Source: Planctomycetales bacterium 10988
GTDB lineage: Bacteria; Planctomycetota; Planctomycetia; Pirellulales; Pb10988
Assembly (NCBI GenBank): GCA_009664345.1
Contig: CP043547.1
Span: 5,298,709-5,362,708 of the forward strand
Direction of reading: 5' to 3'
Length of the DNA stretch: 64,000 nt
Position numbers and translations under genes: made by a program. The stretch's first letter is position 1. The number at the start of each line of letters is the position of its first letter. Positions 31,018 through 50,310 of the stretch are shown here, piece after piece. A model generated the notes under the pieces. It had not been told where the DNA came from and did not search any database. It was given only the letters and a program-made list of their open reading frames with translations.

Positions 31018-31446
31018 ATGAGCCAAGACCCTAGTTCTTCGGAAAAGCCGAAGCTACATATCGACGAAGATTGGAAAACGAAGGTTCAAGCGGAAAAGGA
31101 AGCCTTGAAGAAGGAAGCCGAGACGCCTCCGCCAGAGACCCCGGAAGAACCAGCAAGTGCCCACGAACCGCCTCCGGAAAAATATCCTCCGGCGGAACTT
31201 TTGAGCCTGGTGCAAATGCTCTTGACGCAAGCCTTGCTGACAATGGGGCAAATGCCGAATCCGATGGATGGGCAAACCACCGTCGATCTTGGAGCTGCGA
31301 AACACTTCATCGACTTGATTGCGGTATTGGAAGAGAAGACGAAATCCGACTCAACGACACGAGAGAAGCAAGCAATCTCTTCGGTCCTGCACGAACTTCG
31401 AATGAAATTTATCGAGGTGCAACGTTCTCAGAAGTCTTCTTCGTAA
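31018..31446 (+). CDS. DUF1844 domain protein
   Basis: A 142-residue soluble protein. The first ~55 residues are charged and Pro/Glu-rich. The rest matches DUF1844: LLSLVQMLLTQALLTMGQMPNP, then DLGAAKHFIDLIAVLEEKTK and a final helix. The family is widespread in planctomycetes and related phyla, of unknown function. It lies 153 bases after pyrG. Its last 38 bases overlap the end of the RND transporter gene on the opposite strand. Confidence 0.85.
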   Translation: MSQDPSSSEKPKLHIDEDWKTKVQAEKEALKKEAETPPPETPEEPASAHEPPPEKYPPAELLSLVQMLLTQALLTMGQMPNPMDGQTTVDLGAAKHFIDLIAVLEEKTKSDSTTREKQAISSVLHELRMKFIEVQRSQKSSS

Positions 31447-34285
31447 GCAAAGACGATTCGGCCTCGACGAGGTGAGGATCAGCAAGTGAGTGGGACGGAT
31501 CGACACGCAGAAGTCGGTCCTCCCCTTGATGGTTCTGGTCCTCTTCGGAGGTTTGTTCATCGAAAGTTGCGATGTTTTCTTCTTCAATCGCTCGATCTCT
31601 CGAAAGCCAAGCCAACAGCGGCGGCAACATCACCAGTGAAGTGAAGCAACAGCTCCCCACTCCTAGCACCAAAACTTTGCCGAGGCTCTGAATCCCTTGA
31701 TGATCGGCCAGCATCAAACTCCCAAAGCCGAGCATCGTCGTCAGCGAGGTGAGCAACACGGCATTGGCGGTTGAAAGAGAGAGCCGATACGGTCCGCGGC
31801 AGTGACGATAGTCATGGATCAGGTGGACCCCATCATCGACCCCGATTCCGAGGATTAAAGGCAGCACAATGATATTGGCCGGATTGAGTGGAATTCCCAG
31901 CCAACCCAAGAGGCCGAAGAGTTGCAGCGATCCCACCGCCAGCGGCAGCAGGGCTAAGAGGACATGCCCTAGGTTCCGCAGATCGAGCAGAAGGACGAGG
32001 ATAATCGCCCCCAGTGCCCACAGCGCGGCCTGTTGATAACAGCTTTTCATTTGCCGAGAAGCCTCGAACGTCTGAATCGGCATCCCGGTGATCTCGGGGT
32101 CAACTGACCGAAGCTCTTGCACGAATCGCTGCAAATGCTCCATCTCCCAAATATCCCCTTCGGCATAGATTCGAAGTTGGTGCGTGCCTCCACTCCCCAT
32201 AAAACGATGCAACAGCGGCTCGGGCAAGTCCGCTAGTTCCGGCAGATTGGGATTGCAGATTCTACGGAGCAAACCGATTCGCTCCCATAACTCTTGGGCC
32301 ATGCCTTGTTGAAAGTCGGAAGTTAACGCATAGTAGTCCGCCGGGGCCATCTCCGCGACACGCTCCCGCAACTGCTTCACACGGTAATGCGTGGTGACTT
32401 GCAAATCCCGCGCTTCATCGGAAAGCGGCTGGCCTTGTTGCAAGAGAGTCATTCGCCGCAGCGAGAGTTCCAATTGATCTAGCCGTTGCAGAAGCCGGTT
32501 CGGTTGTTGGATAGGAATCAAAGGAGGGGAAGGAACTTTTTGCCGAACCTGTCTGCTGATCCGTTCGATAACAGGAAGTTTGCCAGGAAGTTCTTGCGGA
32601 ACCAAAGAGACAATTTCTTCACATCGCTGAACCGAAGGAAGTTGCAAAAACTGCTTTTTATATTGAAGCAAGGTCTCGCGATCTTTCGAAAGCGAAACGG
32701 CAAACCACACGCTACGGTCCGATTCTTCGATTAACTTTTGTTCCCAATGTACGCTCGGTAGTTGCTTGGGTTGGAGATTCAGCAAGTTGTGATCGTAAGA
32801 CAAATCGGAAAGCCCCCAGGCACAACCGGCGGTGATCACCAAGCAACTTCCAAAAAGTGGTATTGGAAAGCTCGCCAACGGGTTGAACCATCGATGGACC
32901 GCCAGTGGTTTCGCCAGCGGATCGCCATTTTCTTCTCTATCGGCTATGCGAATTAAGGCCGGTAGGACGACCAGGGCAGCAATCCCACAGAGGAAAATCC
33001 CTCCACCGGCAATGAATCCCAGTTCGGCGACGCCAGTAAATTCCGTAAAGCCCGCGGCGAAGAAAGCAACCGCCGTGGTGACGATCCCCGCCATTAATCC
33101 AGGACCGACCGAGGCGGAAGTCTCCAGCAAAGCCTGATCGCGGGCATGGCCTTCCTTGCGGCATTGCAAATAACGAAGGCAATAATGAATCCCAAAGTCG
33201 ATCCCCAGACCGATTAAAATCACCGCAAAAGAAACGCTCAATATATTGAGGTGCCCGACCAAGAGCGTCAAATAGCCAAATGACCAGCCCATCCCAATCA
33301 ACAGGGCAAAGACGGTGAGTAGCGGATGCCGAATCCCGCCGAAGCCGAGCATAAAGAGCAAAGCCACCCCGATCATCGAAAGGAAACTGGCCGTCGTCAT
33401 CGCCGACTGACTACTTTGCATCTCATCGTATTCGAGAATCGGCAGCCCGGTCAGCCCTATCGTGACTTCCGGAAGTTCTCGTTCGACCTGAGCGATGATC
33501 GCTCGTAGTGCTACGATCGCATCTTGATGCGGAACAAAGCTTGATTCGTCTGTCGGAAATCGAACCAAGACAAGCCCTAACTTGTCCGGCGTCGCTTCCA
33601 AATATTTCGCAGGAGCCGTATCCCAATCGAGGGAAGCATCGCCAAGTTCCTTCCAGGGAGGAACGAAACGTTCTTCCGTCAGATTGATCAAGAGACTCTC
33701 CGAGAAACGCCGCAGTTCTCGCAAAACGTCCTCTTGAGATTCCTTTTGATCCTCAGCAAAAAGCCGATATTGAAAGCCACCCAATTGATTGCCGACATTC
33801 AGCAGCGACCAATCCCCTTGGAAGATTGGTTCGGTTTGCTCAAGGAAATCTTCGGCCTGCTGGAGGGCTTGCGGCGAAAGATGATACAGCCCTTTGCCAT
33901 GAAGTTTGCGGAGATCGACTTTGTAAAAGATGTGTTCGAAGTGTTTCGGCTGCTCGTTCAGGTAGGCTGCTAGCCGGTCTTGAGCGGCATGCATGAGCCG
34001 GGGGTCTTCCGCTTCCACCAAGATGATGGCATCTTCCTCGGCCCCGAATTCCTCGACATAGGCCAGCCACCGCTTGTTAAAATCACTTTTTGGATTCAAC
34101 AAAGCCAGACGGCTGGTATGAAACTCCATCTGGGAAGCCGTGACCGCAACGCCAGCCAGGGCGAGGGCAATCGCCACAAACAAAACGACACCGGGGAACT
34201 GAACGATCGCTTGCGTCAGTTTCACAAACAGGCCAGAGACCCCGGTTCTCTGTCGGGCGGGGTGCCCCGATTCCTCAAGTTCCAA
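31409..34285 (-). CDS. MMPL/RND superfamily exporter (HpnN-like)
   Basis: A 958-residue inner-membrane protein with the RND layout: one membrane helix (~25-45), a large periplasmic domain, helices 2-6 (including LIGLGIDFGIHY, a typical MMPL/sterol-sensing motif), a second periplasmic loop, then helices 8-12 with LILGIGVDDGVHLIHDY. It resembles HpnN-type exporters, which move hopanoids or lipids to the outer membrane; the cargo here is unknown. The start appears to be TTG 34285 (AAAGGG about seven bases before); no ATG occurs before the first helix. It lies 63 bases after the gene at 34349-35827, a likely partner, and overlaps the DUF1844 gene tail to tail by 38 bases. Confidence 0.88.
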   Translation of the reverse strand: MELEESGHPARQRTGVSGLFVKLTQAIVQFPGVVLFVAIALALAGVAVTASQMEFHTSRLALLNPKSDFNKRWLAYVEEFGAEEDAIILVEAEDPRLMHAAQDRLAAYLNEQPKHFEHIFYKVDLRKLHGKGLYHLSPQALQQAEDFLEQTEPIFQGDWSLLNVGNQLGGFQYRLFAEDQKESQEDVLRELRRFSESLLINLTEERFVPPWKELGDASLDWDTAPAKYLEATPDKLGLVLVRFPTDESSFVPHQDAIVALRAIIAQVERELPEVTIGLTGLPILEYDEMQSSQSAMTTASFLSMIGVALLFMLGFGGIRHPLLTVFALLIGMGWSFGYLTLLVGHLNILSVSFAVILIGLGIDFGIHYCLRYLQCRKEGHARDQALLETSASVGPGLMAGIVTTAVAFFAAGFTEFTGVAELGFIAGGGIFLCGIAALVVLPALIRIADREENGDPLAKPLAVHRWFNPLASFPIPLFGSCLVITAGCAWGLSDLSYDHNLLNLQPKQLPSVHWEQKLIEESDRSVWFAVSLSKDRETLLQYKKQFLQLPSVQRCEEIVSLVPQELPGKLPVIERISRQVRQKVPSPPLIPIQQPNRLLQRLDQLELSLRRMTLLQQGQPLSDEARDLQVTTHYRVKQLRERVAEMAPADYYALTSDFQQGMAQELWERIGLLRRICNPNLPELADLPEPLLHRFMGSGGTHQLRIYAEGDIWEMEHLQRFVQELRSVDPEITGMPIQTFEASRQMKSCYQQAALWALGAIILVLLLDLRNLGHVLLALLPLAVGSLQLFGLLGWLGIPLNPANIIVLPLILGIGVDDGVHLIHDYRHCRGPYRLSLSTANAVLLTSLTTMLGFGSLMLADHQGIQSLGKVLVLGVGSCCFTSLVMLPPLLAWLSRDRAIEEENIATFDEQTSEEDQNHQGEDRLLRVDPSHSLADPHLVEAESSLLTKKTSENVAPR

Positions 34286-34348: not shown

Positions 34349-35827
34349 TTATCGCACTTCTTTCGGCCGCGTTGCGATCGATCGCGGGGGTTGTTGCTTA
34401 GGCTCGGATGGGGAATAGCTCGGTGGCAGCTTCAACTTAAGATGTGTCACCAAGCAGTGTCGTTCATACGAAAGCAAATAAAGATGGACTACGTTCGGAT
34501 CACGGAGGTCTTGGTGCAGTACCGGGCCGTCGATCGCCACCGTGTGATGATCGATCCAACGATCTTCCTGATCCAACAAGAAACTATAAAAGGGGCTTTC
34601 GTGCGGCAGATTTTTCTGGAGATCCTCATAGGTTTGATAGAACGGAGGCACCCCGATCCCCATCGGCATATAGAGACCGTGAGGATATTCGTCAGTGCTT
34701 AGCTGCGGAAGCGAGTCCAAATCAACGCCCCCCACGAGGAACCGGCACGTTTCGTTTCCACTCGCATCGGTGTAAACAAGTTCCACTTCATGCAAGACTT
34801 CATCACTCGCCGGGGTGATCACCTCGCGAAGGATCGTTTCTTGAAGCTGGGCAATGCGCCAATATTCATTCCCCCACGGGACGGATTTTTCGTAATATCC
34901 CGGTGGATGGAACGAGGCGAACGTGATGTCTTCGGCGGATTGCAGGCTTTGCCAAGTCTCACATTTCTGCCCGAAGATATTTTTCAATTTGCGACGTTGT
35001 TCTCCCTGAGAGAGAACCGCTGCTTGAGGATTGTGCTGTACTTCAAGGTTCGCTTCTGAAATCACTTCCCGCAGTGGCTCGAGGTTGATTACCGTGCCGG
35101 CGGGGTCGGACCAATGTTCGAGCTTGTACCAATGTTTCCAGTATGAAATCTGGGTATTGCGTTCCATCAGTCGTTTATAATGGCCCATCGGAAAGGTGAA
35201 CCAGCCTTGATATAGCAAGGCCTTTTCGCCTTGTTCATTGGGATGAAAGAGCAGGACTTCCCACAATCCGGCGTTAAGGCAGTTCTTCGCCAGGGCAACT
35301 TCGGTCAAGCTCTTTCGTTCGAGACCATCACCCCCGAGGACCTCGACATGTTCGGAGGGAAGGGGAAAACGGACCTGTTGGCGGTTCCATTCACGATCGG
35401 TCAAAGCAACGCGGATCAGTCCTTCATCGCCTTTCGTCCACTCGGGCACCGAGGGCGTCATCAGACTGACATCGATATTTTTGAAGTGAATCTTCGCGAT
35501 CTGTTCGTTATCGGATTCCAAGATAAAATCAAAATGGGTGTCGTCCCGCTGGATCAGCGTCAGCTCACGTTCTTGATATTTCCCATGATGCTGACTCTTG
35601 ATCGAGGGGTCTTCGGGATATTCCGCCGCAGACATTTCCTCCAGCGGGAGGTTCATGAGGTCATCCGCTTCATAGCGAGAGAAGAACCACCAGCCTCCCG
35701 AAACCCCCACCAGCAGCGAGCAGACCAAACCAATCATTGCCAAGTGGGCGAGCCGTTCGAAGAAACTTGACGAGCGAGGTGACGGAGGGCGGACTTCCTG
35801 TTTTCGGTCTAATTGCTGCATCGCCAT
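34349..35827 (-). CDS. Single-pass membrane protein, likely partner of the RND exporter
   Basis: A 492-residue protein with a cytoplasmic N-terminus of ~25 residues, one membrane helix (LAHLAMIGLVCSLLVGVSGGWWFF) and a large periplasmic, beta-rich domain full of Trp and Tyr. I recognise no family. ATG 35827 is chosen because AAGGAG lies eight bases upstream; ATG 35821 is also possible. Its position directly before the RND gene suggests a membrane-fusion or accessory role, but it lacks the coiled coil and lipoyl-like motifs of standard adaptor proteins, so this is only inference from context. Confidence 0.7.
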   Translation of the reverse strand: MAMQQLDRKQEVRPPSPRSSSFFERLAHLAMIGLVCSLLVGVSGGWWFFSRYEADDLMNLPLEEMSAAEYPEDPSIKSQHHGKYQERELTLIQRDDTHFDFILESDNEQIAKIHFKNIDVSLMTPSVPEWTKGDEGLIRVALTDREWNRQQVRFPLPSEHVEVLGGDGLERKSLTEVALAKNCLNAGLWEVLLFHPNEQGEKALLYQGWFTFPMGHYKRLMERNTQISYWKHWYKLEHWSDPAGTVINLEPLREVISEANLEVQHNPQAAVLSQGEQRRKLKNIFGQKCETWQSLQSAEDITFASFHPPGYYEKSVPWGNEYWRIAQLQETILREVITPASDEVLHEVELVYTDASGNETCRFLVGGVDLDSLPQLSTDEYPHGLYMPMGIGVPPFYQTYEDLQKNLPHESPFYSFLLDQEDRWIDHHTVAIDGPVLHQDLRDPNVVHLYLLSYERHCLVTHLKLKLPPSYSPSEPKQQPPRSIATRPKEVR

Positions 35828-36025
35828 CGTGTCCACTCCTTCGCCCCGTGGGCTTGCAAACCCTGCCTTGGCGACGTTCAATACAAAGAGAACTTGGAAA
35901 CTAGCAAAACGTTTTGATGTTCAAAGGGGTGATTTATCCAGGTTGTGCCAAACTAGGTCAAGGCGAGTTCTCGAAAATCTCTCAACCTCGCCCGTCCCTT
36001 TCTTGCTTATGAGGGCTTACTCTCC

Positions 36026-37027
36026 ATGCGACTTTGTCGATTTCTCCCAGCACCCCTAACCTCCCCGGCGGAGGCTCAACCGATTCCCCAATTCGGCTTT
36101 TATCAGGAAGATGCCATCATCCCGCTGAAGGCCACCTTCCAAACTTATCGCTCCGAATCAACCGAGCCGCCGGGACCGCTTCCCGATTTTGTTTCCGCGA
36201 AGATGACGGACTTTCTGCCCCCTGATGGAAAGTGGTTTGAAGCAACGAAGGCGGTTTTTCAGTGGCTTTCCGAGAATCCCCAAACTTCCCAAAACCTTGC
36301 CATTCCTGACTTTCAACTTGAAATCCCTGTAGACATTCCCCCCAAGTTTCTTCTGTTGGCAGGCAACTATCCCAAACATGTCGAAGAACGGGGCGATACG
36401 GCTGCGGAACGCCGGGAGACCTTTCCTTATGTCTTCTGGAAACCGCCAACGACGAGCCTCCGTCCGAGTGGAGCAACGATCCCGTTGCCGGCGATCAACC
36501 CGAACGCTTGGGATTACGAATTGGAATTGGCTGTCTTGATCGGACGCAGGGCGTTTCAGGTTTCCGAAGAAGACGCGTTGGGATATGTCGCTGGATATAC
36601 GATTGTCAATGATTTGTCCGATCGGAACTTTCGCCCCAATCCTGATCGTCGCGAACGCCCTCGAGATCGATTCTTTGACTGGCTGCATGGAAAATGGCAC
36701 GAAGGCTCGGCCCCTTGTGGACCATGTGTTGCGTCCGCAAGTTCCTTGTCTGACCCGCAGGCTTTGGACATGCAACTAACGATCAACGGAGAAATCCGTC
36801 AAGATGCGAACACCTCGCAGCAAGTCTTTTCCGTCGCTGCGGTGATTAGCTTCCTTAGTTCCTTTGTCCCCTTAGAACCAGGGGATTTGATTTCTACCGG
36901 AACTCCAGCAGGCGTTGGTGCTGCAACCGGAAGATTTCTCCAACCAGGCGATCTCATTGAAGCGAAGATCGAATCGATTGGGACTTTAGTGACCAAGATT
37001 GCTCAAGATTCGAGCGAAATGCAATAA
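36026..37027 (+). CDS. Fumarylacetoacetate hydrolase (FAH) family protein
   Basis: A 333-residue enzyme. The C-terminal FAH domain has the metal ligands in YELELAVLIG (Glu-x-Glu), VNDLSDRNF (Asp) and the family signature GDLISTGTPAGVG. Relatives hydrolyse or decarboxylate 2-oxo acids, such as fumarylpyruvate, acylpyruvates or 2-oxohept-3-ene-dioate, with Mg2+. The N-terminal ~100 residues are less conserved. ATG 36026 is the best start, although its ribosome binding site is weak. The substrate cannot be told. It stands alone and converges with the tiny membrane protein gene 20 bases downstream. Confidence 0.88.
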   Translation: MRLCRFLPAPLTSPAEAQPIPQFGFYQEDAIIPLKATFQTYRSESTEPPGPLPDFVSAKMTDFLPPDGKWFEATKAVFQWLSENPQTSQNLAIPDFQLEIPVDIPPKFLLLAGNYPKHVEERGDTAAERRETFPYVFWKPPTTSLRPSGATIPLPAINPNAWDYELELAVLIGRRAFQVSEEDALGYVAGYTIVNDLSDRNFRPNPDRRERPRDRFFDWLHGKWHEGSAPCGPCVASASSLSDPQALDMQLTINGEIRQDANTSQQVFSVAAVISFLSSFVPLEPGDLISTGTPAGVGAATGRFLQPGDLIEAKIESIGTLVTKIAQDSSEMQ

Positions 37028-37047
37028 ATCGTTGAAAAGAAAAGACC

Positions 37048-37137
37048 TTACCAATTTTTTCGATTGGCTCGCAAGATTTCCACCACGGCGGCCATGACGA
37101 CAAAAAACGCAAAGGTGAGCGCGGTATCTACTCCCAT
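37048..37137 (-). CDS. 29-residue single-pass membrane microprotein
   Basis: The peptide is MGVDTALTF, then AFFVVMAAVVEIL, then RANRKNW: a single membrane helix with a basic C-terminal end (Arg, Arg, Lys), which predicts an N-out/C-in orientation. ATG 37137 is preceded, at five bases, by GGAGGAGA, among the best ribosome binding sites in the window. The frame extends upstream to a TTG at 37239, but that has no such site. No family recognised. It has its own upstream region of about 170 bases from the next minus-strand gene. Peptides of this type often modulate a larger membrane complex. Confidence 0.55.
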   Translation of the reverse strand: MGVDTALTFAFFVVMAAVVEILRANRKNW

Positions 37138-37142
37138 CGAGG

Positions 37143-37150
37143 TCTCCTCC
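37143..37150 (-). promoter_or_regulatory. Strong Shine-Dalgarno of the 29-residue protein
   Basis: GGAGGAGA on the minus strand, five bases before ATG 37137. It is the main reason for calling such a short gene. Confidence 0.6.
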
Positions 37151-37313
37151 AGATAGCTGAGGTGTTTTGAATCGAAGTCGAATGTCTTCAATATCGGCAG
37201 GAGAGTTTCTAGGAATTCACCATTTTTGTCGAGAGGCAATTTTTCTTTAATCGGAAGACTTTGGCAGGCTTCTTGAAACTAACATTCGTTAAGATGGGGA
37301 AAATAGAAAGATT

Positions 37314-38006
37314 TTAGTGTTTGATAATTAGAGAGCGACCTTGGGAGGAGGGAGCTGGTGGCATGGAGCGGGATGGTTCAAGAGGTTGTTCGATTTTCTG
37401 CTGGGGAAAATCGGGTTCTTCGGGACCTGTCGCGGTCGTCATCGGGTAGGTGCTGGGTTTGGGACCGAGTTGGATGCGACCTTGGTCGTCGAGGTGCCAC
37501 TCTCCTCGCATGTAGCGGCCCGCGACTGTATTGCTGGCTCCATAATTTCGAAAGACAGGGCGATCGCCGACATTGGGAATGACTCCGATGACGAAAGGAC
37601 TTTGCGAAACATCTCCTACAAAGCCATAGGTGCCATTAAGCCCGGTCATGGTGGGTGTTTGATTCAAAATGCGGGAATTGCTTCCTTGATTGAAACCAAA
37701 ACGTCCATTCAAAGACCCGCCACCAAAAGGAAAGCCGATGCCGAATCCGCTGGCATTATTCGGCTGAACTCCGCCATAACCGGGGTTCGTGAGTCTGCCA
37801 GGTCCTAGCTGAAGATTGAAACGAACATTGCCACGGTTGTGCTGATAGTTGGCATTGAAACCGGACTGTTCATAGAAAGAATGCCCCGAAGTCGTGAAGG
37901 GGGTTCCGGTCGTCGCAGCCGTTTGCTGGGCCAGTGCATCGTTCTCTAATAAGAAGATGAGTGGCAAAGCCGCAACAAGCGTGAAGATGAACAAGGAACG
38001 AGACAT
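37314..38006 (-). CDS. Exported Gly/Asn-rich protein, unknown
   Basis: A 230-residue protein with a Sec signal peptide (MSRSLFIFTLVAALPL, cut near DALAQQ). The mature part is rich in Gly, Asn and Phe (GYGGVQPNN, GFGIGFPFGGGSLNGRFGF) and ends in a Pro-rich tail. The pattern suits a surface or outer-membrane-associated protein; I recognise no domain. ATG 38006 places the signal peptide at the very start; the frame runs 13 codons further up. No terminator was found downstream. Confidence 0.7.
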   Translation of the reverse strand: MSRSLFIFTLVAALPLIFLLENDALAQQTAATTGTPFTTSGHSFYEQSGFNANYQHNRGNVRFNLQLGPGRLTNPGYGGVQPNNASGFGIGFPFGGGSLNGRFGFNQGSNSRILNQTPTMTGLNGTYGFVGDVSQSPFVIGVIPNVGDRPVFRNYGASNTVAGRYMRGEWHLDDQGRIQLGPKPSTYPMTTATGPEEPDFPQQKIEQPLEPSRSMPPAPSSQGRSLIIKH

Positions 38007-38096
38007 GGCATTTTCCCAGTATTGAAAAGCAAACTTTCTCTTCAATATAGCAAAGGGAAAACCTTGAGAACAACCAATTTCTCAACGCTTCCGCGC

Positions 38097-38127
38097 AAAA
38101 GAAAACCGATGCACAGGCACCGGCTTC
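38097..38127 (-). terminator. Intrinsic terminator of the gene at 38148-38651
   Basis: On the minus strand AAGCCGGTGC-CTGT-GCATCGGTTTT is a hairpin with a four-base loop, followed by a T-rich tract. It lies about 20 bases past the stop codon. Confidence 0.8.
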
Positions 38128-38147
38128 TCGATGTAGTTGCCAGATAA

Positions 38148-38651
38148 TTAAGGCTGATTGAGAATGTCAGTCGGCCAGTTATCGGGGTCGAGATCATCGA
38201 CCAAGCGGCCAAAGACTTCGAGGGTCATCTGACAGGCGATCGGGTGGCGATGGGTTTGCGTTTTCTCTTTGCGATAACGTTTCAAAGAAAGCGAACCGCC
38301 GGTCTTCAGCAACAACTCATAATATTGAACGGCTTGCGGTTCTTGTTGCGGTTTGGCCGACCGCATCATCACGCTCGGGCCTTGCGGGTCCTCTTCCAAG
38401 AGATGGATCGGTTCCAAGAGGTAGGTCAAGCGTTCTTCCAAGGCTTTGCCCAACTCACGAAGTTGATCCATGGTGGCCGTGGCCAACTGCGTCGTGGTAA
38501 TTTCAAAACCATCAAACGCCCCCGCGAGCGATTCGACAGCGGTGAAATTGCATTCCAGCGTGGTATCCCCTTGAGGAACCCGCAACAGCCACGGAGTCGG
38601 CGGCCGCGTGTTTTGTTGTATTTGACGCAGTGCGTCCTCTTTTAATCCCAT
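38148..38651 (-). CDS. Hypothetical protein, 167 residues
   Basis: A soluble protein without signal or membrane segments. The N-terminus (LKEDALRQIQQNTRPPTPWLL) is followed by strands and helices with no motif I know. ATG 38651 has AGGGGGA about seven bases upstream. It lies 110 bases after spoVR on the same strand, so it could be the last gene of the prkA-yhbH-spoVR transcript; the terminator at 38097-38127 follows it directly, which supports that. A role in the same stress response is inference from position only. Confidence 0.65.
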   Translation of the reverse strand: MGLKEDALRQIQQNTRPPTPWLLRVPQGDTTLECNFTAVESLAGAFDGFEITTTQLATATMDQLRELGKALEERLTYLLEPIHLLEEDPQGPSVMMRSAKPQQEPQAVQYYELLLKTGGSLSLKRYRKEKTQTHRHPIACQMTLEVFGRLVDDLDPDNWPTDILNQP

Positions 38652-38761: not shown

Positions 38762-40318
38762 CTAGGTTACGACGCTGACGACTTCGAAGGTGTTGCCTTG
38801 ATCTTCGGCGAATTCACTTCCATCAAAAGACAGCACACTCTTCACCTCATCGACGACGGTTTCTAGGTGAACGGGCCGTTTCCAAAGCAAATAGAGATTC
38901 GCCAACGTATCTCTGGCATAATCCATCTGCAGTTCAATGCCTTGGAAAATGTGTTGCAATAACAACTCGCCCCGGTTTTTGTAATTGCCGTCGAGCACCT
39001 GAATCCGCGGTTGCCCACGATTGGTCAGTTGAAAAAGAAGTCTCTGTTTAATTTTCGGAAATTCCCGACTCTCGATTTCATAGACTTCACTCGAATCATT
39101 GAAGCCGAAAGAAAATAATTTCTGTTCGTGGCAAAATTCCGGGGTCAGGAAAGTATCGATGAACGTCAAATCGTTATGAATCCGGCGAACTTCGTAAATC
39201 TTTTCTTTCCCCAACCCGGCTCCGGTATCCCAATTCTTTCGCTCTTGCCAGTCGTCGCATTCTTCCCAGTCCTTGCCAAACTGGCCTCGATCCCAGCGTT
39301 CTTCAATATTGCGGAAGAGTTCGATGCCGAGTTTATAAGGGTTTAATCGTCCACCGTGAGTCGCGACCGTACCGGAATGATGCTCGGCATAATGGATGAT
39401 ATCGTTCGGCTCGATCAAGTATTTGGTCATTAACTTCGAGTGCCAATAACTGGCCCAACCTTCGTTCATGATTTTGGTTTGGCCCTGCGGAGCGAAGTAA
39501 TAAGCCTCATCACGAATGATCGAAAGGATATCGATTTGCCACGGCTTCAGCGGTGCATGCTCTAGTAAGAAGAGCAAGACATCGAACATCGGTTGCTCGG
39601 GCACCTTGCGGGCGTCCTTGATTTTATCCGTTTGCACCCTGCGGCGGGCTTCCGCTTCGGCGGCGAGGACATCCGGCGGATTGACAAATGGATCAAGATA
39701 GTTCTTCGCACGAAATCGCCCTGGCGTTCGACGATCTTCTTCATAATCCCCATCTTCCTCCACGGGAATTTCAGAAGGTTTCCCATCGTGCCGCTTCATG
39801 AAGGTGGAATGAATGTCAATCAAGTCATCAATACTGAGGCAGGCATCAATGAAGGTCTCGACGGCTTCGATGCCAAATCGATCGATATAACGACGAACCC
39901 GTTGGGCATGGTTGGCCATTTGGTCCATCATCTTGCGATTCGTATGGTCGAAATAGAGATTGTTCTTGAAGAAATCGCAGTGACCATAGACGTGGGCCAT
40001 CACGAGTTTTTGATCGGTCAGCGGATTGCATTTCAGCAAGTAGGCGTAGCACGGATCGTTATTGATCACGAGTTCGTAGATCTTCGAAAGCCCATACGAA
40101 TAGCTTTTGGAAAGCTGCTCGTATTCCATCCCGAACCGCCAATGCGGATAGCGGGTGGGAAAACCTCCGTAGGCGGCGATTTCATTGAGCTGGTTATAAT
40201 CGACGACTTCGAAGATCGTATCGTAATAATCGAGGCCGTGCGCGGTGGCATAGCCTTCGATTTCCACTTGCAGATTGGCAAGTTCCTTGGGCAGATGTTC
40301 CAATGGCTGGGTCGGCAT
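38762..40318 (-). CDS. spoVR: SpoVR family protein
   Basis: A 518-residue cytoplasmic protein of the SpoVR/YcgB family. Typical segments are seen: PHWRFGMEYEQLSKSYSYGLSKIYELVINNDPCYAYLL (in the family's N-terminal half), LVMAHVYGHCDFFKNN, and the NEGWASYWHSKLM segment. The name comes from spore cortex formation in Bacillus, but the family is widespread in non-sporulating bacteria, where it travels with PrkA and YhbH, as here. Its biochemical role is unknown. The start lies three bases after the yhbH stop codon, and the ribosome binding site (GGGAAGGGACG) is within the end of yhbH, so translation is probably coupled. Confidence 0.95.
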   Translation of the reverse strand: MPTQPLEHLPKELANLQVEIEGYATAHGLDYYDTIFEVVDYNQLNEIAAYGGFPTRYPHWRFGMEYEQLSKSYSYGLSKIYELVINNDPCYAYLLKCNPLTDQKLVMAHVYGHCDFFKNNLYFDHTNRKMMDQMANHAQRVRRYIDRFGIEAVETFIDACLSIDDLIDIHSTFMKRHDGKPSEIPVEEDGDYEEDRRTPGRFRAKNYLDPFVNPPDVLAAEAEARRRVQTDKIKDARKVPEQPMFDVLLFLLEHAPLKPWQIDILSIIRDEAYYFAPQGQTKIMNEGWASYWHSKLMTKYLIEPNDIIHYAEHHSGTVATHGGRLNPYKLGIELFRNIEERWDRGQFGKDWEECDDWQERKNWDTGAGLGKEKIYEVRRIHNDLTFIDTFLTPEFCHEQKLFSFGFNDSSEVYEIESREFPKIKQRLLFQLTNRGQPRIQVLDGNYKNRGELLLQHIFQGIELQMDYARDTLANLYLLWKRPVHLETVVDEVKSVLSFDGSEFAEDQGNTFEVVSVVT

Positions 40319-40321
40319 GTG

Positions 40322-41437
40322 TTAACGTCCCTTCCCTAAGAAAAGCTTGATCGAATCGAGAATGGCCTCGCGGTCCGGGATTTCCGAAAGCACCAAATTA
40401 TCGCAGACGCCACGGAAGCGTTCGAAGAGGGCCGGCAAAAACTCGCCACTTCCGTAAGGGCTTTCCACTTGGCCATAACAAAAGAGATTTACATTCGGCA
40501 AAATATGTTCGGAAAGCACATCGAAACAGGTTTCGTTATCTTCGCCCCAGTTATCGCCATCGGAGAAATGGAAACAATAGATGTTCCAATCCTCCGGTGG
40601 AAACTGCTTCTTGATCAAATCAAGACAGACATTATACGCCGAACTAATCCGGGTTCCGCCACTTTCACGTGTGTGGAAAAAAGTATCCTCATCGACTTCG
40701 CGAGCCAGGGCATCGTGGATAATGTACCGGCGTTCGATGCCATCATATTGGCTACGGAGCCAAGTATCGATCCAGAAGGCTTCCGTCCGCACAATCTCTT
40801 TTTGTTCTTCCGCCATCGAGCCGGAGACGTCCATCATATAAATAATGGCCGCGTTCGCTTCGGGGATTTGATACGTTTTCCAAGAGCGATAACGTTTGTC
40901 TTCCTTGATCGGCACGACACGGGGATTGTCAGGGTTATACGTTCCCGTCGAAACCTGGCGGCGAAGGGCCTCTTTGTACGTCCGCTTAAAATGCCGGAGC
41001 GACTCGGGACCCGAGCGGCGAATCCCGGTGTAGCGGGATTTTTCCTCGACAATGTTCGCCTTGCCTTTGGGTTCGATACGGGGAAGTTCTAGCTCTTCGC
41101 CAAGGATTTCGGCAAGTTCTTCCAAAGAGACATCGACTTCCAGGACGTGGCCGCCGGGTTCATTTCCTGCCGAGCCGGGACCGCCGGGTTGATCGCCATC
41201 TTGCCCTCGTCCGACAGGTTGACCGACTTCGCCTTCGCCTTGGCCGACGCCACCGGAGTTGCGGTCGCCGTGACGAAAGTGAGGCATATCGAGTTGCGGC
41301 AGAGGAATGCTGACCAGGTCCTTCCCTTTCCGGCCAATCATCTCTCCGTGCTTGACATATTTCTTCAGGTTCTGGCGGATTTTTCCGCGCACAATTTGCT
41401 TGAAGCGAGACTGGTCCCGCTCAATCCGCATGACCAT
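40322..41437 (-). CDS. yhbH: YeaH/YhbH family protein (DUF444, VWA fold)
   Basis: A 371-residue protein of the DUF444 family. The N-terminal part has a Gly-rich stretch ([12 protein letters not shown] and following), the C-terminal half is a von Willebrand A-like domain with the metal site [10 protein letters not shown] (DxSGS). It is the standard second member of the PrkA-YhbH-SpoVR set, induced in stationary phase or stress in other bacteria. ATG 41437 or ATG 41431 may be used; the ribosome binding site is weak. The 148-base gap after prkA contains a stable hairpin (41461-41486), which could set its expression relative to prkA. Confidence 0.93.
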
Positions 41438-41585: not shown

Positions 41586-43652
41586 TTACTCGTCCTCTTT
41601 GGCATCTCCGCGAGCGAAGATACTGGCGACATAGTTCAAAACATCGGTAGCGCTCTCTTCGTTATATCCATAGTCCCGAATCAAGCGGCTTTTGACGACA
41701 TCGATCTTCGCCTGGGTATCGGCATCGACCACGTTACTGACAAGACTGGTCAGCTTGATGGTGTCCTTCTGATCTTCAAAGAGTTTGAGTTCCAGGGCTT
41801 TGTGCAAGCGTTCGTTGGTGCGATAATCGAACTTCCGACCATCGATCGCCAAGGCCCCGATGTAGTTCATGATCTCGCGGCGGAAATCATCTTTGCGGGA
41901 CGAAGGGATCTCGATCTTCTCTTCAATTGATCGCATCAAGCGTTCATCCGGTTCTTCGTATTGGCCGGTATATTTGTTCTTCACTTTCTCACGCTGCGTA
42001 TATGCCTTGACGTTGTCGATATAGTTGGCACAGAGACGGCTGAGGGCATCTTCATCGGCGGCGATGGCACGACGGACCTCGTTCTTGACCGCATCTTCAT
42101 ATTCTGCTTTCACCATATTCAACAATTCCCGATAGCGAGCTTTCACTTCTTCATCATTAATGAGGCTGTGATGTTTCAAGCCGGCCTCCAACTCATTGAG
42201 GACCATGAAGGGATTGATGGAAGTCGCTGTCGGGTGCGTGACCAGGGCATTCGAAACCTTGTCTTGCACATAGCGGGGCGAAATCCCATGCAGCCCTTCG
42301 CTTTGGCTTTGCTCTTTGAGTTCCTTGATGTTTTCCTCGGTGAAACCGGGAAGGCTCTTGCCGTTGTAAAGTTTGAGCTTTTGCATCAAGGAGATATTGG
42401 CGTTCTTCGGGTCTTCGAGTCGCGTGAGGATCGCCCACATCGCGGCCATCTCGATGGTGTGCGGAGCGATATGCTTGCTGACTTTCTCGGTGTTGTAATC
42501 CTTTTTATAGATACGGATTTCATCATCGAGGCGGGTGACATAAGGCACATCGATCTTCACGGTCCGATCGCGGAGGGCTTCCATAAATTCATTCGATTGT
42601 AAGCGGCGATATTCAGGCTCATTGGTATGCCCGAGAATCACCTCATCAATATCGGTTTGGGCGAACTTCTTCGGCTTGACCTTATGCTCTTGGCTGGCAC
42701 CCAGCAGATCGTACAAGAAGGCCACATCCAACTTGAGGACTTCCACGAACTCGATGATCCCTCGATTGGCGACATTGAATTCCCCATCGAAGTTGAAAGC
42801 CCGCGGGTCGCTATCGCTGCCGTATTCGGCGATCTTGCGATAGTTGATATCCCCGGTGAGTTCGGTCGAGTCCTGGTTTTTCTCGTCCTTCGGCTGGAAG
42901 GTTCCAATGCCAATACGGTCTTTTTCGCTGAGAATCAGCCGTTTGACGCGGACATCTTTGACCACTTGCGTCCAGTCTCCGCCGTAACGCTTCAGGCGTT
43001 CCGAATAGAGATGGCGGGTGAAAGGACAAAGTTCACCAGTAATGCGAATGCGATAACAATCCGGGGGAAGACTCGCGTTGAGTTGCTCCTCCACCGTGGA
43101 ACGGAATCGCTGCGGAATCAGATGCAGAGGCTCACCATTCATCGGACACCAATGAATGAGGTCCGGATTCTCCAGATCGACGAATCCTAAGGTATAAATA
43201 GCTCCAGCATCGCTCTGGCTGTAGCGTTCCAGGCCTTTCTTCAGCATACGGGCGATCGTACTTTTGCTACTTCCCACCGGGCCATGCAATAGAAGCACCC
43301 GGCGTTCGATCCCATAACCTTTGGCCGCACTTTCAAAGGCATTGACGAGGGCCATCAAGGTCTCATCCAAGCCGAAGACCGCATCTTGGCCGTTATGATC
43401 AGGATCATCAAAAAAGCGGTAGCGTACCCGTTTCTCGCGGGCGACTTCGTATTCTTCCTTCCCATAAGAAAGGACCATGTCATAAACCCGCTGAAACGCG
43501 TTGCGGGTAACTTTCGGGTTTTCTTTCACAATATCCAAGTACTGCTCGAACGTCCCGATCCAATTCTTTTTACGGAATTGCTCGAGGTCCTGATGCTCCG
43601 CAATCAGGTCCATGATGGAACGTCCGGCGGCGTTGGAAAGTTCGGAACTCAT
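41586..43652 (-). CDS. prkA: PrkA family serine protein kinase
   Basis: A 688-residue protein of the PrkA/YeaG family. The N-terminal AAA-like domain has Walker A GPVGSSKS (residues 124-131) and an expected Walker B region; the C-terminal part is the PrkA C-terminal domain with distant kinase similarity. In other bacteria PrkA responds to nutrient stress and sporulation; protein kinase and ATPase/protease-like activities have been reported. ATG 43652 follows a GGGGGAAAG site. It is the first gene of the operon with yhbH and spoVR and is preceded by about 1.1 kb without a gene, where its promoter should lie. Length is normal for the family (~640-690). Confidence 0.95.
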
Positions 43653-47320: not shown

Positions 47321-48013
47321 ATGGAGCGCATCCAAAAACGAATGACCTGGCTGGCGGTCGTGACCTTGGTCAGTTGGGGAGGACTGGGAATCATTGGCTG
47401 TGGAGACGCTTCCAAAACTCCAACTCCTGAGACTCAATCCGCCGAGAAGCCCACGGAGTCCAATGAAGCGGCTTCAGACTCGATGGTCATGAAGACTCCG
47501 GTCGATGCCGTGCAAAAATTCCTCACCGCCGTCAAAGGGGGGGATAATGCCTTAGCCGATCAACTTTTGACTCCGGTCGCTCGTCAAAAAATCGAAGAGC
47601 ATAACCTCTATGTTGCCCCTCCAGGAACGCCGACGGCAAAGTTCCAAGTCGGGGAATTCGAAGTCAAAGACGATGGAGCCCAGGTCTATAGCACTTGGAC
47701 CGATGTCGATGAATATGGCGAAGAACATACCGACAAGTTGGTTTGGATTCTTCGTGATGAAGACAATATCGGCTGGCGAATCGCAGGCGTTGCTACGACC
47801 GTCATCGAAGGTCGTCCGCCGCTCATTCTCAACTTCGAAGACCCTGAAGAGATGGAATACAAGAAGCAATTGTTAGCAGAAGAAATTGCTCGATTGCAAC
47901 AAGAGGAACAACGCCAACAACAAGCCACCGAGGAAGCCGACAACTCCGGTGAGAAAGAAACACCTCCCCGCGTTGCCAGCCAACCGGATGATGGCCCGAA
48001 TGTCAGTAAATAA
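47321..48013 (+). CDS. Lipoprotein, unknown
   Basis: A 230-residue protein with a lipoprotein signal (basic start, hydrophobic stretch, LGIIGC lipid site). After a Pro/Thr/Glu-rich linker the core (about residues 55-185: PVDAVQKFLTAVKGGDNALADQLLTPVAR ... WILRDEDNIGWRIAGVA) resembles DUF4878/NTF2-like lumazine-type alpha+beta folds often found in lipoproteins. The C-terminus is a Gln/Glu-rich helix (RLQQEEQRQQQ) and a disordered tail. ATG 47321 is supported by AAGGAGGA eight bases upstream; the frame is open 44 codons further. Probably anchored to a membrane facing the periplasm; function unknown. Confidence 0.78.
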   Translation: MERIQKRMTWLAVVTLVSWGGLGIIGCGDASKTPTPETQSAEKPTESNEAASDSMVMKTPVDAVQKFLTAVKGGDNALADQLLTPVARQKIEEHNLYVAPPGTPTAKFQVGEFEVKDDGAQVYSTWTDVDEYGEEHTDKLVWILRDEDNIGWRIAGVATTVIEGRPPLILNFEDPEEMEYKKQLLAEEIARLQQEEQRQQQATEEADNSGEKETPPRVASQPDDGPNVSK

Positions 48014-48036
48014 CATTGAGTTGTTATAAAAAATTC

Positions 48037-48083
48037 AAAAAAGAAACAGGCCCGAACTATTGTTTGTGGCCTGTTTCTTTTTA
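48037..48083. terminator. Bidirectional intrinsic terminator
   Basis: AAAAAGAAACAGGCC and GGCCTGTTTCTTTTT form a long perfect stem with A- and T-rich flanks, between a plus-strand and a minus-strand gene that converge. Either strand can serve as terminator. Confidence 0.9.
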
Positions 48084-48099
48084 TTTATCAAGTGTCATG

Positions 48100-48477
48100 C
48101 TATCCGGCAGCTTCCTTTGCTCGCCGGGCATCAATAAATGACTTGATACACAAGACTATAAAAATAAGCGAAAGACCAGCTACTAGCGATTGTGAAATAA
48201 TTGCGGCTGGCCGCTCAACTTCCCCACCACTTAACAGTGTGGGCAGACTGAACACTCCTTTGATGGTGCCTAAAAAAGCCAACAGTCCAATGACCGCCGC
48301 GCCGTGCATGGCATGTTTTAAATAGGCTTCCTTTAATGCAAAGAAACCACAAACTATAGCAGGGATTCCAATGGCAGCAGGGATCAAAGCCGTTTTAGAA
48401 ACCCCTCCGGTTCCGAAGTAACCAATGACCCCGATAAGGACGAGCAACGTTCCATAAACAATCGTTACGATCGGCAT
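48100..48477 (-). CDS. Small four-helix membrane protein, unknown
   Basis: A 125-residue protein with four hydrophobic segments (about 4-22, 28-46, 57-73, 92-112) and a basic/acidic C-terminal tail (KSFIDARRAKEAAG), so both ends should face the cytoplasm. Gly and Ala in the helices (GVIGYFGTGG, AAIGIPAIVCG) recall TMEM14-like proteins, but I cannot assign the family. It is flanked by a bidirectional terminator and lies 86 bases after the Lys-rich protein gene. Confidence 0.7.
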   Translation of the reverse strand: MPIVTIVYGTLLVLIGVIGYFGTGGVSKTALIPAAIGIPAIVCGFFALKEAYLKHAMHGAAVIGLLAFLGTIKGVFSLPTLLSGGEVERPAAIISQSLVAGLSLIFIVLCIKSFIDARRAKEAAG

Positions 48478-48563
48478 GTATTTTTAGCTCCGAGTAAGCG
48501 TTGGATGACAAAATATTTTCTCTACAAAATCTGACAGTCGATTCCTGTAAATAAACAGTCAGA

Positions 48564-49424
48564 CTATTTGGATATACTGGATTCTAACTTTTTCAATTTA
48601 TCTGCAAACATTTTAACGGCAGATTCGATCAGCCTCATTCCTTTGACTTTCAAAACTTCGCGTTCTTGATTCAGCTCCTCTTCGGTAGCCCCACGGCTTT
48701 TCTTTTTTCCTTCGGTTCGAAGTAAAGATTTCCAGTCACTCTCATAAATACTAAGCTCTGAACTTAGCTTTCCTGCAGCGCTCAGTGCGGTTTTGACTTC
48801 ACCTGCTTGGTTGTCCATCACCACAGTGAGGTTTGTAAGTTGGTCAAAAGTACTGTCAAACAATGCCTCTTTAATCTGATCTTTCCTGACAGCCGCTTTT
48901 AAAGAACTTTGAAACTTTTTAAACGAAGCGTTTAAACTTTTCATGCGAGACTCAAGCTCTTTTTTATCTGCTTTGCCACCCGCTTGAGGAGTTTTGTCTT
49001 TCTTCTTGGAAGACTCTTTTTGTTCATCCAATTCCCAAGGCAAAGTCTTCGCGGATTTAATCGACTTTTCCAAAGTACTTAAAGGAGTGATTAAATTTTT
49101 CTTTAAGGCGGCTTTCGTTTCTCGATCTTTTCCCAGTCCAAGATCAAAGGCATTGAGCTTTTTTTGTAACCAAGCAACAGCCTTTGTTAAATCTTTGCGA
49201 GAGTCTGCTTCTTTATAGAGTGTATGAAACTCACGAATGGCCAACCCTAGAAAAACACCACGGCTCTCTTCCGGGATTCCGGCTTTAGAGGCGATCTTGT
49301 CCCATTTTGTCCGTTCCGGGATGAGCTTCTTTCTTTGATCGTCAAGTTTCTTCTTTTCTTTTTCCGCGGACTTGACGCGGATTTCCTCCTTCTTTTCCAA
49401 CAACTCTTCAGGGGTGATTGCCAT
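48564..49424 (-). CDS. Lys/Glu-rich helical protein, unknown
   Basis: A 286-residue soluble, strongly charged protein predicted to be almost wholly helical, with two coiled-coil-like stretches (about 5-40 and 150-185) and a Lys/Gly linker between. No signal peptide, membrane segment or known motif. ATG 49424 has AGGGAGA six bases upstream. The DNA is somewhat more A+T-rich than its neighbours, which may point to a different history. It lies 46 bases after hemQ on the same strand and may be co-transcribed, without an obvious link to haem. Confidence 0.65.
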   Translation of the reverse strand: MAITPEELLEKKEEIRVKSAEKEKKKLDDQRKKLIPERTKWDKIASKAGIPEESRGVFLGLAIREFHTLYKEADSRKDLTKAVAWLQKKLNAFDLGLGKDRETKAALKKNLITPLSTLEKSIKSAKTLPWELDEQKESSKKKDKTPQAGGKADKKELESRMKSLNASFKKFQSSLKAAVRKDQIKEALFDSTFDQLTNLTVVMDNQAGEVKTALSAAGKLSSELSIYESDWKSLLRTEGKKKSRGATEEELNQEREVLKVKGMRLIESAVKMFADKLKKLESSISK

Positions 49425-49470
49425 AAGAAGTCTCCCTAAATCGAACCAAGGTAGTAAAAGAAAATAAATA

Positions 49471-50310
49471 CTAAGTTTTTACAATCTGACAGTGAGATAA
49501 AATTTCATCGGCAGGCGTTATATAGCTGACATAAAACGGCCCGAATTCTGCATATTTTGCGCTCGCTTCATCGAAACGCATTTTATAAACAATGTTTGCT
49601 AAATATCCAGGGTTTGTTGCCCAGAGTGTTACGCCCCATTCCCAGTCATCCATTCCAAAACTGACTGTCACAAGTTGGGTGACCTTTCCGGCAAAAGTCA
49701 TTCCGGTGCGGCCATGTTCGGACATCAAGGAATCTCTGACAGAAAACGGCAGGGCATACCAGTTCGCGGCCGGATCACGCCATTTGTTCATTGGGTAGAA
49801 ACAGGTCGCTGGCCAGTCGGATAGCTTCGGCGTCAGGCGTTGTTTGTTCATTGCCTCTAAACGACGGCTGTAGCCAGAGACCTTCGTTTTGTACTCTTCG
49901 CCTTCGGGATCGAGTCCTTCTTTTTGCAGGCGTTCGCCGAATCGTTCGACAGTCGGGACATATTCCGAAACTTCCGTCAGCGAAGTAAACGAATAGCTAG
50001 GGATCAAGGCCGGACCCAAGGGGCTAGCGAGCAGCTTTTGTTGCAGAAGGTTGAGCTTGAGCGGATCGGGATCGAGGGCCATGATCCCGAAGTCGGCCTT
50101 GTGCCCCATAATGATCGAGGTTTGCAGTTGTGCCGGGGCATGCTCAGCCTGTGGATCAAGGATTTGAGTAAACGCAGCCTGGCCTTGGGCGATTTTTTCC
50201 GGCGAAAAGGACGCAATTCGGCTCCGGTCAAAGGTATAGAACCAATGTTGACAATGCCAACCTTCGGTGGGGGTGAGGGAGGTCTCGACCTCTTGCGGTT
50301 GCGGACGCAT
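49471..50310 (-). CDS. hemQ: Coproheme decarboxylase (HemQ/ChdC, chlorite dismutase family)
   Basis: A 279-residue cytoplasmic protein. The C-terminal half has the family's signature: FYPMNKWR with Tyr172 (the radical-forming Tyr), NWYALPFSVRDSLMSEHG with His199 as expected haem ligand, then SFGMDDWEWGVTLWATNP and MRFDEASAKYAEFGPFY. The enzyme removes two carboxyl groups from Fe-coproporphyrin III with peroxide, giving haem b, the last step of the coproporphyrin-dependent route. The distal residue typical of true chlorite dismutases (Arg) is not evident, favouring HemQ. Somewhat longer than Firmicute HemQ (~250). ATG 50310 is the first start in frame. Confidence 0.88.
   Translation of the reverse strand: MRPQPQEVETSLTPTEGWHCQHWFYTFDRSRIASFSPEKIAQGQAAFTQILDPQAEHAPAQLQTSIIMGHKADFGIMALDPDPLKLNLLQQKLLASPLGPALIPSYSFTSLTEVSEYVPTVERFGERLQKEGLDPEGEEYKTKVSGYSRRLEAMNKQRLTPKLSDWPATCFYPMNKWRDPAANWYALPFSVRDSLMSEHGRTGMTFAGKVTQLVTVSFGMDDWEWGVTLWATNPGYLANIVYKMRFDEASAKYAEFGPFYVSYITPADEILSHCQIVKT

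What the first reader, a model, noticed from the sequence alone, without database searches (positions are those of the whole stretch)
37048..37137. 29-codon membrane protein behind an excellent ribosome binding site
GGAGGAGA five bases before an ATG opens a frame for one membrane helix with a basic end. It is far below usual gene-calling limits and may be a regulatory peptide of a membrane complex.
Basis: partly seen in the sequence, partly recalled or inferred. Interest (0 to 1): 0.5.

Follow-up and report, generated by a model that had tools for sequence, protein, structure and literature searches.

The report
Unconserved 29-residue membrane peptide gene
A bacterial chromosome carries a tiny frame for a 29-residue membrane-spanning peptide that has several marks of a real gene, but no relative of it turned up in the genomes searched, so its role is unknown and it is probably an ordinary kind of lineage-specific small membrane protein.

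Summary
In detail: ATG 37137 (minus strand) opens a 29-codon frame ending at 37048, GGAGGAGA five bases before it. In 2.06 Mb of this genome (about 31%), two intergenic frames behind a Shine-Dalgarno (SD) site are as hydrophobic (shuffles: mean 0.36, maximum 2), and only this one also has coding-like codons (0 in 25 shuffles; cut-offs set after seeing it). The codon signal begins at the ATG, not in the extension to 37239. Probably translated, not proven.

Conservation was not found: one copy in its own genome and no credible relative in overlapping samples of 57, 396, 392 and 397 genomes (own included), nor in phages, plasmids, Pfam, NCBIfam or PDB. None of the sampled relatives is closer than the same order, so a family-restricted gene remains possible.

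Immediate neighbours name no partner; the nearest large membrane protein is an RND transporter about 2.8 kb away. An upstream arm (11 of 13 complementary) could hide the ribosome site, as in some type I toxin mRNAs; suggestive only. Best reading: lineage-restricted single-span membrane peptide, more likely accessory or regulatory than toxic. Interest low.

The parts
37048..37137 (-). 29-codon frame, ATG start, TAA stop; one hydrophobic segment (about residues 5-22, by eye) and basic C-terminal end
   Evidence: hydropathy; codon signal
37143..37150 (-). Shine-Dalgarno-like GGAGGAGA, 5 bases before the ATG
   Evidence: SD use in this genome
37143..37155 (-). 3' arm (in the mRNA sense) of an inverted repeat that contains the ribosome site
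37192..37204 (-). 5' arm of the same inverted repeat (11 of 13 complementary); could mask the ribosome site in the mRNA
37138..37239 (-). in-frame upstream extension to a TTG (63-residue frame); no coding-like codon signal, judged not part of the gene

Best explanation
A lineage-restricted gene for a 29-residue single-span inner-membrane peptide, started at ATG 37137. Seen in the sequence: the frame, the ribosome site, the hydrophobic segment, the coding-like codons. Inferred: the peptide inserts with its basic C-terminal tail in the cytoplasm (positive-inside rule), packs its helix (with an acidic residue, E20, near that end) against a larger membrane protein and alters that partner's stability or activity, as KdpF or AcrZ do. 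The partner is unknown; by position alone the nearest large membrane protein is the HpnN-like RND transporter at 31409-34285 on the same strand, which would be an AcrZ-like arrangement, but nothing tests this. A 13-base upstream arm may keep the ribosome site folded away so that translation is held low. I put about 0.6 on 'translated small membrane protein' and, of that, more than half on an accessory or regulatory role.
For: Frame and ribosome site. The only one of 81 intergenic SD+ATG small frames in 2.064 Mb that is both strongly hydrophobic and coding-like; 0 in 25 shuffles. Codon signal starts at the ATG. SD sites are used in this genome. [quoted passage not shown]
Against: No credible relative in samples of 57, 396, 392 and 397 genomes, own included, nor in phage or plasmid records. 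No SD-plus-hydrophobic small frame near 23 FAA-hydrolase loci, 29 loci matching the 243-residue neighbour, or 19 SpoVR loci of other genomes. No promoter-like or terminator-like site in 36900-37450. At a hydropathy cut-off of 1.8 there is no clear excess over shuffles. The immediate neighbours are not an evident membrane complex. Accessory subunits often sit beside their partner gene and are conserved with it (recalled).
Confidence: 0.4

Rival explanations
1. It is not a gene: a chance open frame in an intergenic stretch that happens to have a good SD and a hydrophobic reading.
For: No conservation found. SD+ATG small frames in this genome are no more frequent than in shuffles, so most are chance; scaled to the whole genome about one strongly hydrophobic one is expected by chance. 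No promoter-like or terminator-like site beside it.
Against: SD, hydropathy and codon usage together not reached in 25 shuffles of the intergenic parts of 2.064 Mb (cut-offs set afterwards); codon signal confined to the frame.
Confidence: 0.35
2. It is a type I toxin-like membrane peptide: the mRNA hides its ribosome site by folding, an antisense RNA (perhaps read-through from the convergent FAA-hydrolase gene, whose stop lies 20 bases away) holds it down, and the peptide depolarises the cell's own membrane when released.
For: Size and build (29 residues, one helix, charged residues, basic end). Passages of PMC8309996: TisB is a 29-residue inner-membrane peptide with an inhibitory leader structure, and the Fst mRNA holds its SD in a stem-loop. 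Here the SD arm has an 11-of-13 complement upstream, reached by 0.45% of 2000 shuffled leaders and by 0 of 127 long frames with a strong SD. Such toxins are often narrowly distributed (recalled).
Against: No Pfam or NCBIfam match, no Rfam match in the window. Predicted SD accessibility is not exceptional: 25 of 127 long frames are as low, and 7% of 300 shuffled leaders; fold energies are ordinary. No promoter-like site for an antisense RNA near. Single copy.
Confidence: 0.15
3. The true product is a longer protein from TTG 37239 (63 residues), or a decayed remnant of one.
For: The frame is open upstream, 76 residues in all.
Against: The 34 extra codons have log-odds -0.5 and synonymous log-odds -0.6, against 6.8 and 4.3 for the 29 codons; no Pfam match.
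Confidence: 0.06

Closest known systems
Accessory small membrane proteins of bacterial complexes (KdpF, CydX, AcrZ, MgtS)
   Same: Very short, one hydrophobic helix, few charged residues
   Different: No Pfam or NCBIfam match, no known partner complex directly beside it, no conservation found
Membrane-active type I toxins (TisB, Fst and others)
   Same: 29 residues as TisB, single helix, possible masking of the ribosome site
   Different: No family match, no antisense RNA shown, toxicity untested, predicted masking within the range of ordinary genes
Lineage-specific or newly arisen small hydrophobic ORFs (discussed in passages of PMC10065794)
   Same: Short, hydrophobic, intergenic, no relatives found
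   Different: Codon usage is gene-like; origin from non-coding DNA not testable without near relatives

Membership tests
Known accessory small membrane proteins (KdpF, CydX, AcrZ and the like) | Match to the family profile | tested here: not met
   No Pfam family and no NCBIfam family at E<=10; HMMER filters drop most weak matches, so sensitivity for 29 residues is limited
Known accessory small membrane proteins (KdpF, CydX, AcrZ and the like) | Gene beside that of the partner complex, or shown to bind it | tested here: inconclusive
   Next genes: FAA hydrolase, 243- and 167-residue proteins without confident family, SpoVR, DUF444. An HpnN-like RND transporter is about 2.8 kb away. Binding not testable here.
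Type I toxin | Short hydrophobic peptide | tested here: met
Type I toxin | Antisense RNA antitoxin | tested here: inconclusive
   No Rfam match in the window, no promoter-like site in 36900-37450; transcription not measured
Type I toxin | Ribosome site sequestered in the mRNA (some members) | tested here: inconclusive
   11-of-13 complement upstream, but accessibility within the range of ordinary genes (25 of 127 as low) and fold z-scores of 0.57, -0.25 and -0.61
Type I toxin | Growth arrest on over-expression | not testable with these tools
   needs an experiment
Conserved small protein gene | Homologues in related genomes | tested here: not met
   sensitivity controls; no sampled genome closer than the same order

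The most novel reading that the evidence does not exclude
A family-restricted, riboregulated membrane peptide: translation is held down by a leader arm that masks its ribosome site, perhaps with antisense read-through from the convergent gene, giving either a type I toxin-like peptide or a stress-released regulator of a membrane transporter, in what I take to be a planctomycete. I did not search the literature for type I toxins in that phylum.
Probability: 0.1. Interest if true: 0.5.

Novelty: new member of a known kind. Interest (0 to 1): 0.2.

Why it matters
If translated, it is one more small membrane protein that length-based gene calling would miss, in a lineage with no closer relative than the same order among the genomes sampled. 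It would show that such genes can be picked out by ribosome site, hydropathy and codon usage even without relatives. It does not by itself open a new mechanism.

Tried and rejected
Homologues. In the order sample 29 of 396 genomes match at E<=5, the own genome included, in 31 places; best other E 0.06. Loci were given for 19 of the 30 other places, and I read these by eye; the other 11 were not inspected. Four matches of one genus (L006-L009) seem to lie antisense to a ribosomal-protein-like frame (my reading by eye of DNA printed, not searched). Of the other short frames, L005 has a stop inside, and L010 and L012 show no GGAG, GAGG or AGGA just before an ATG; the rest are parts of longer frames. 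G770 (E 0.19) lies in a 564-residue open frame and was not looked at further. I take all as chance; E-values are per genome, so chance gives this many.

Synteny. No SD-plus-hydrophobic small frame downstream of 17 FAA-hydrolase relatives of 50-55% identity. A second scan took 74 loci around FAA hydrolase, the 243-residue neighbour and SpoVR; 3 are of the own genome, and two of these show this frame while the third does not reach it; the other 71 show none. Loci were given for only part of the matches (30 and 20 loci), each with 1500 bases or less on either side. Many matches of the 243-residue query are to short parts of much longer proteins and are not orthologues.

Genome contigs with the FAA hydrolase gave 6 distant loci: no named near relative. 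That tool, like, says that records of the same or a very near genome may be left out. The PHROG match (phrog_29735, E 0.075) is treated as chance.

Leader peptide: rejected because no gene on the same strand follows at once; the next gene downstream is convergent. AlphaFold was not run: the peptide is below the 30-residue minimum.

Full report
What is there. On the minus strand an ATG at 37137 opens a frame of 29 codons that ends with TAA at 37048. GGAGGAGA lies at 37150-37143, five bases before the ATG. The peptide has one hydrophobic stretch with charged residues at either end (D4; E20, R23, R26, K27). The window lies at 5298709-5362708 of a single-contig genome of 6.65 Mb; of the 56 other genomes drawn as relatives, none is closer than the same order. 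That it is a planctomycete is my recollection from gene content; no call names the organism.

Neighbourhood. On the plus strand an FAA-hydrolase-family gene ends at 37027 (PF01557, E 4e-58), so the two are convergent with 20 bases between. Upstream on the minus strand lie a 243-residue protein (37314-38045, signal-peptide-like start by eye, no confident family), a 167-residue protein (38148-38651, no confident family), SpoVR (38762-40318) and a DUF444 protein (40322-41437). Further downstream on the minus strand lie a 510-residue protein without confident family (34349-35881) and an RND/MMPL transporter (31409-34285) that resembles HpnN below that family's cut-off. No sigma-70-like promoter or intrinsic terminator was found in 36900-37450. 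In 36900-38200 there are two promoter-like and one terminator-like sites, all on the plus strand, about as many as in shuffles.

Is it more than chance? I took 20 stretches of 20 kb and 80 more of the same genome as background. Over 464 kb, intergenic SD+ATG frames of 20-60 codons number 19 against 16.4 (sd 3.4) in 30 dinucleotide shuffles, so such frames are not in excess; only one, this one, has a 17-residue hydropathy mean of 2.0 or more, against 0.03 in shuffles. Over 2.064 Mb the numbers are 81 against 72.2 (sd 7.3), and two against 0.36 (maximum 2); at a cut-off of 1.8 they are two against 1.16, no clear excess. Asking for hydropathy of 2.0 and a coding log-odds of 3 or more leaves only this frame, against none in 25 shuffles. 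The second hydrophobic frame (L123 8854-8979 minus) has a negative log-odds. By codon usage the frame sits at the 78th percentile of 1290 gene segments and above 99.8% of 6022 short stop-bounded frames; against intergenic stop-free stretches alone, 9 of 1313 score as high, and 16 of 1313 on synonymous choice alone. The 34 codons upstream to the TTG at 37239 score -0.5, so the signal begins at the ATG. SD sites are in use in this genome: 193 of 778 first in-frame ATGs of long frames against 2.6% of 12705 out-of-frame ATGs. All this was computed after the frame had been singled out, with cut-offs set in view of it, and is descriptive.

Conservation. The peptide occurs once in its own genome. Counting the own genome in each sample: among 57 genomes one other weak match (E 0.58); among 396 of the order 28 others at E<=5, best 0.06; among 392 of the phylum one other at 0.19 (E<=0.5 asked); among 397 of the class one other at 0.16 (E<=0.2 asked). 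The samples overlap. E-values are per genome, so chance gives this many. The 19 other loci that I could read look like chance. Controls: two altered copies of the peptide, 62% and 36% identical by the tool's count with mostly conservative changes, found the locus at E 8e-8 and 0.003, so a well-aligned relative of moderate identity should have been seen; I tried no copy with unlike changes. Phage and plasmid records hold no match at E<=1; Pfam, NCBIfam and the PDB none at E<=10; PHROGs one weak (E 0.075). Around relatives of the neighbouring genes there is no comparable frame. The limit is that the relatives are all distant; the test that matters, a near relative, could not be made.

RNA. The ribosome site lies in one arm (37143-37155) of an inverted repeat whose other arm is at 37192-37204, 11 of 13 complementary, 36 bases apart. 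Predicted probability that the SD is unpaired: 0.08-0.09 for transcripts starting at 37313, 37260 or 37220 and running to the stop, 0.12-0.23 for a start at 37204, and 0.45-0.47 for a start at 37190, which lacks the arm. A complement as good occurs in 0.45% of 2000 shuffled leaders and in none of 127 long frames with a strong SD. Against it: fold energies are ordinary (z 0.57, -0.25 and -0.61; the first lacks part of the arm), 7% of 300 shuffled leaders hide the SD as well, and 25 of the 127 frames have as low an accessibility. The repeat was noticed first and tested afterwards. Masking is possible, not shown.

How it would work. If translated, a 29-residue single-span peptide with a basic end most likely inserts with the C-terminus inside and acts through a larger membrane protein. 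Passages of PMC11539335 name KdpF, AcrZ, MgrB, SafA, MgtS and MntS as such regulators, and type I toxins among those that act on the membrane itself. PMC8309996 (passages) describes TisB as a 29-residue inner-membrane peptide and SD masking in the Fst system. PMC10903887 (abstract and outline; first part of section 13) and PMC4325964 (abstract and outline) treat small membrane proteins and the difficulty of identifying small proteins; PMC10065794 (passages) discusses small hydrophobic frames without relatives. By position the RND transporter at 31409-34285 is the nearest large membrane protein, and AcrZ is known to bind an RND pump (abstract of PMC7267776 as listed), but nothing here tests such a pairing. 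None of the 12 titles listed, of 136 papers found, in one search for planctomycete small proteins names that phylum; this is no proof of absence.

Verdict. Observation confirmed; gene status probable but unproven; regulatory role unsupported beyond analogy; ordinary in kind. Interest 0.2.

Noticed in passing
window 37143-37155 and 37192-37204: Inverted repeat whose one arm contains the ribosome site of the small frame; could mask it in the mRNA.
   Followed up: yes
window 37027-37048: FAA-hydrolase gene and the small frame converge with 20 bases between and no terminator-like site found, so antisense read-through is possible.
   Followed up: partly
window 38762-41437: SpoVR and DUF444 genes side by side, followed upstream by a 688-residue frame at 41586-43652 that could be the usual PrkA-type kinase (not searched).
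   Followed up: no
window 31409-34285: RND/MMPL transporter resembling the hopanoid-associated HpnN (TIGR03480 E 7e-168 but below its cut-off); nearest large membrane protein to the small frame.
   Followed up: no
L123:8854-8979 (minus): A second SD-preceded hydrophobic 41-residue frame in the same genome, with a lysine-rich end but no coding-like codon signal.
   Followed up: no
window 48001-50000: G+C falls to 0.433; most of the other 2-kb bins lie between 0.47 and 0.55.
   Followed up: no
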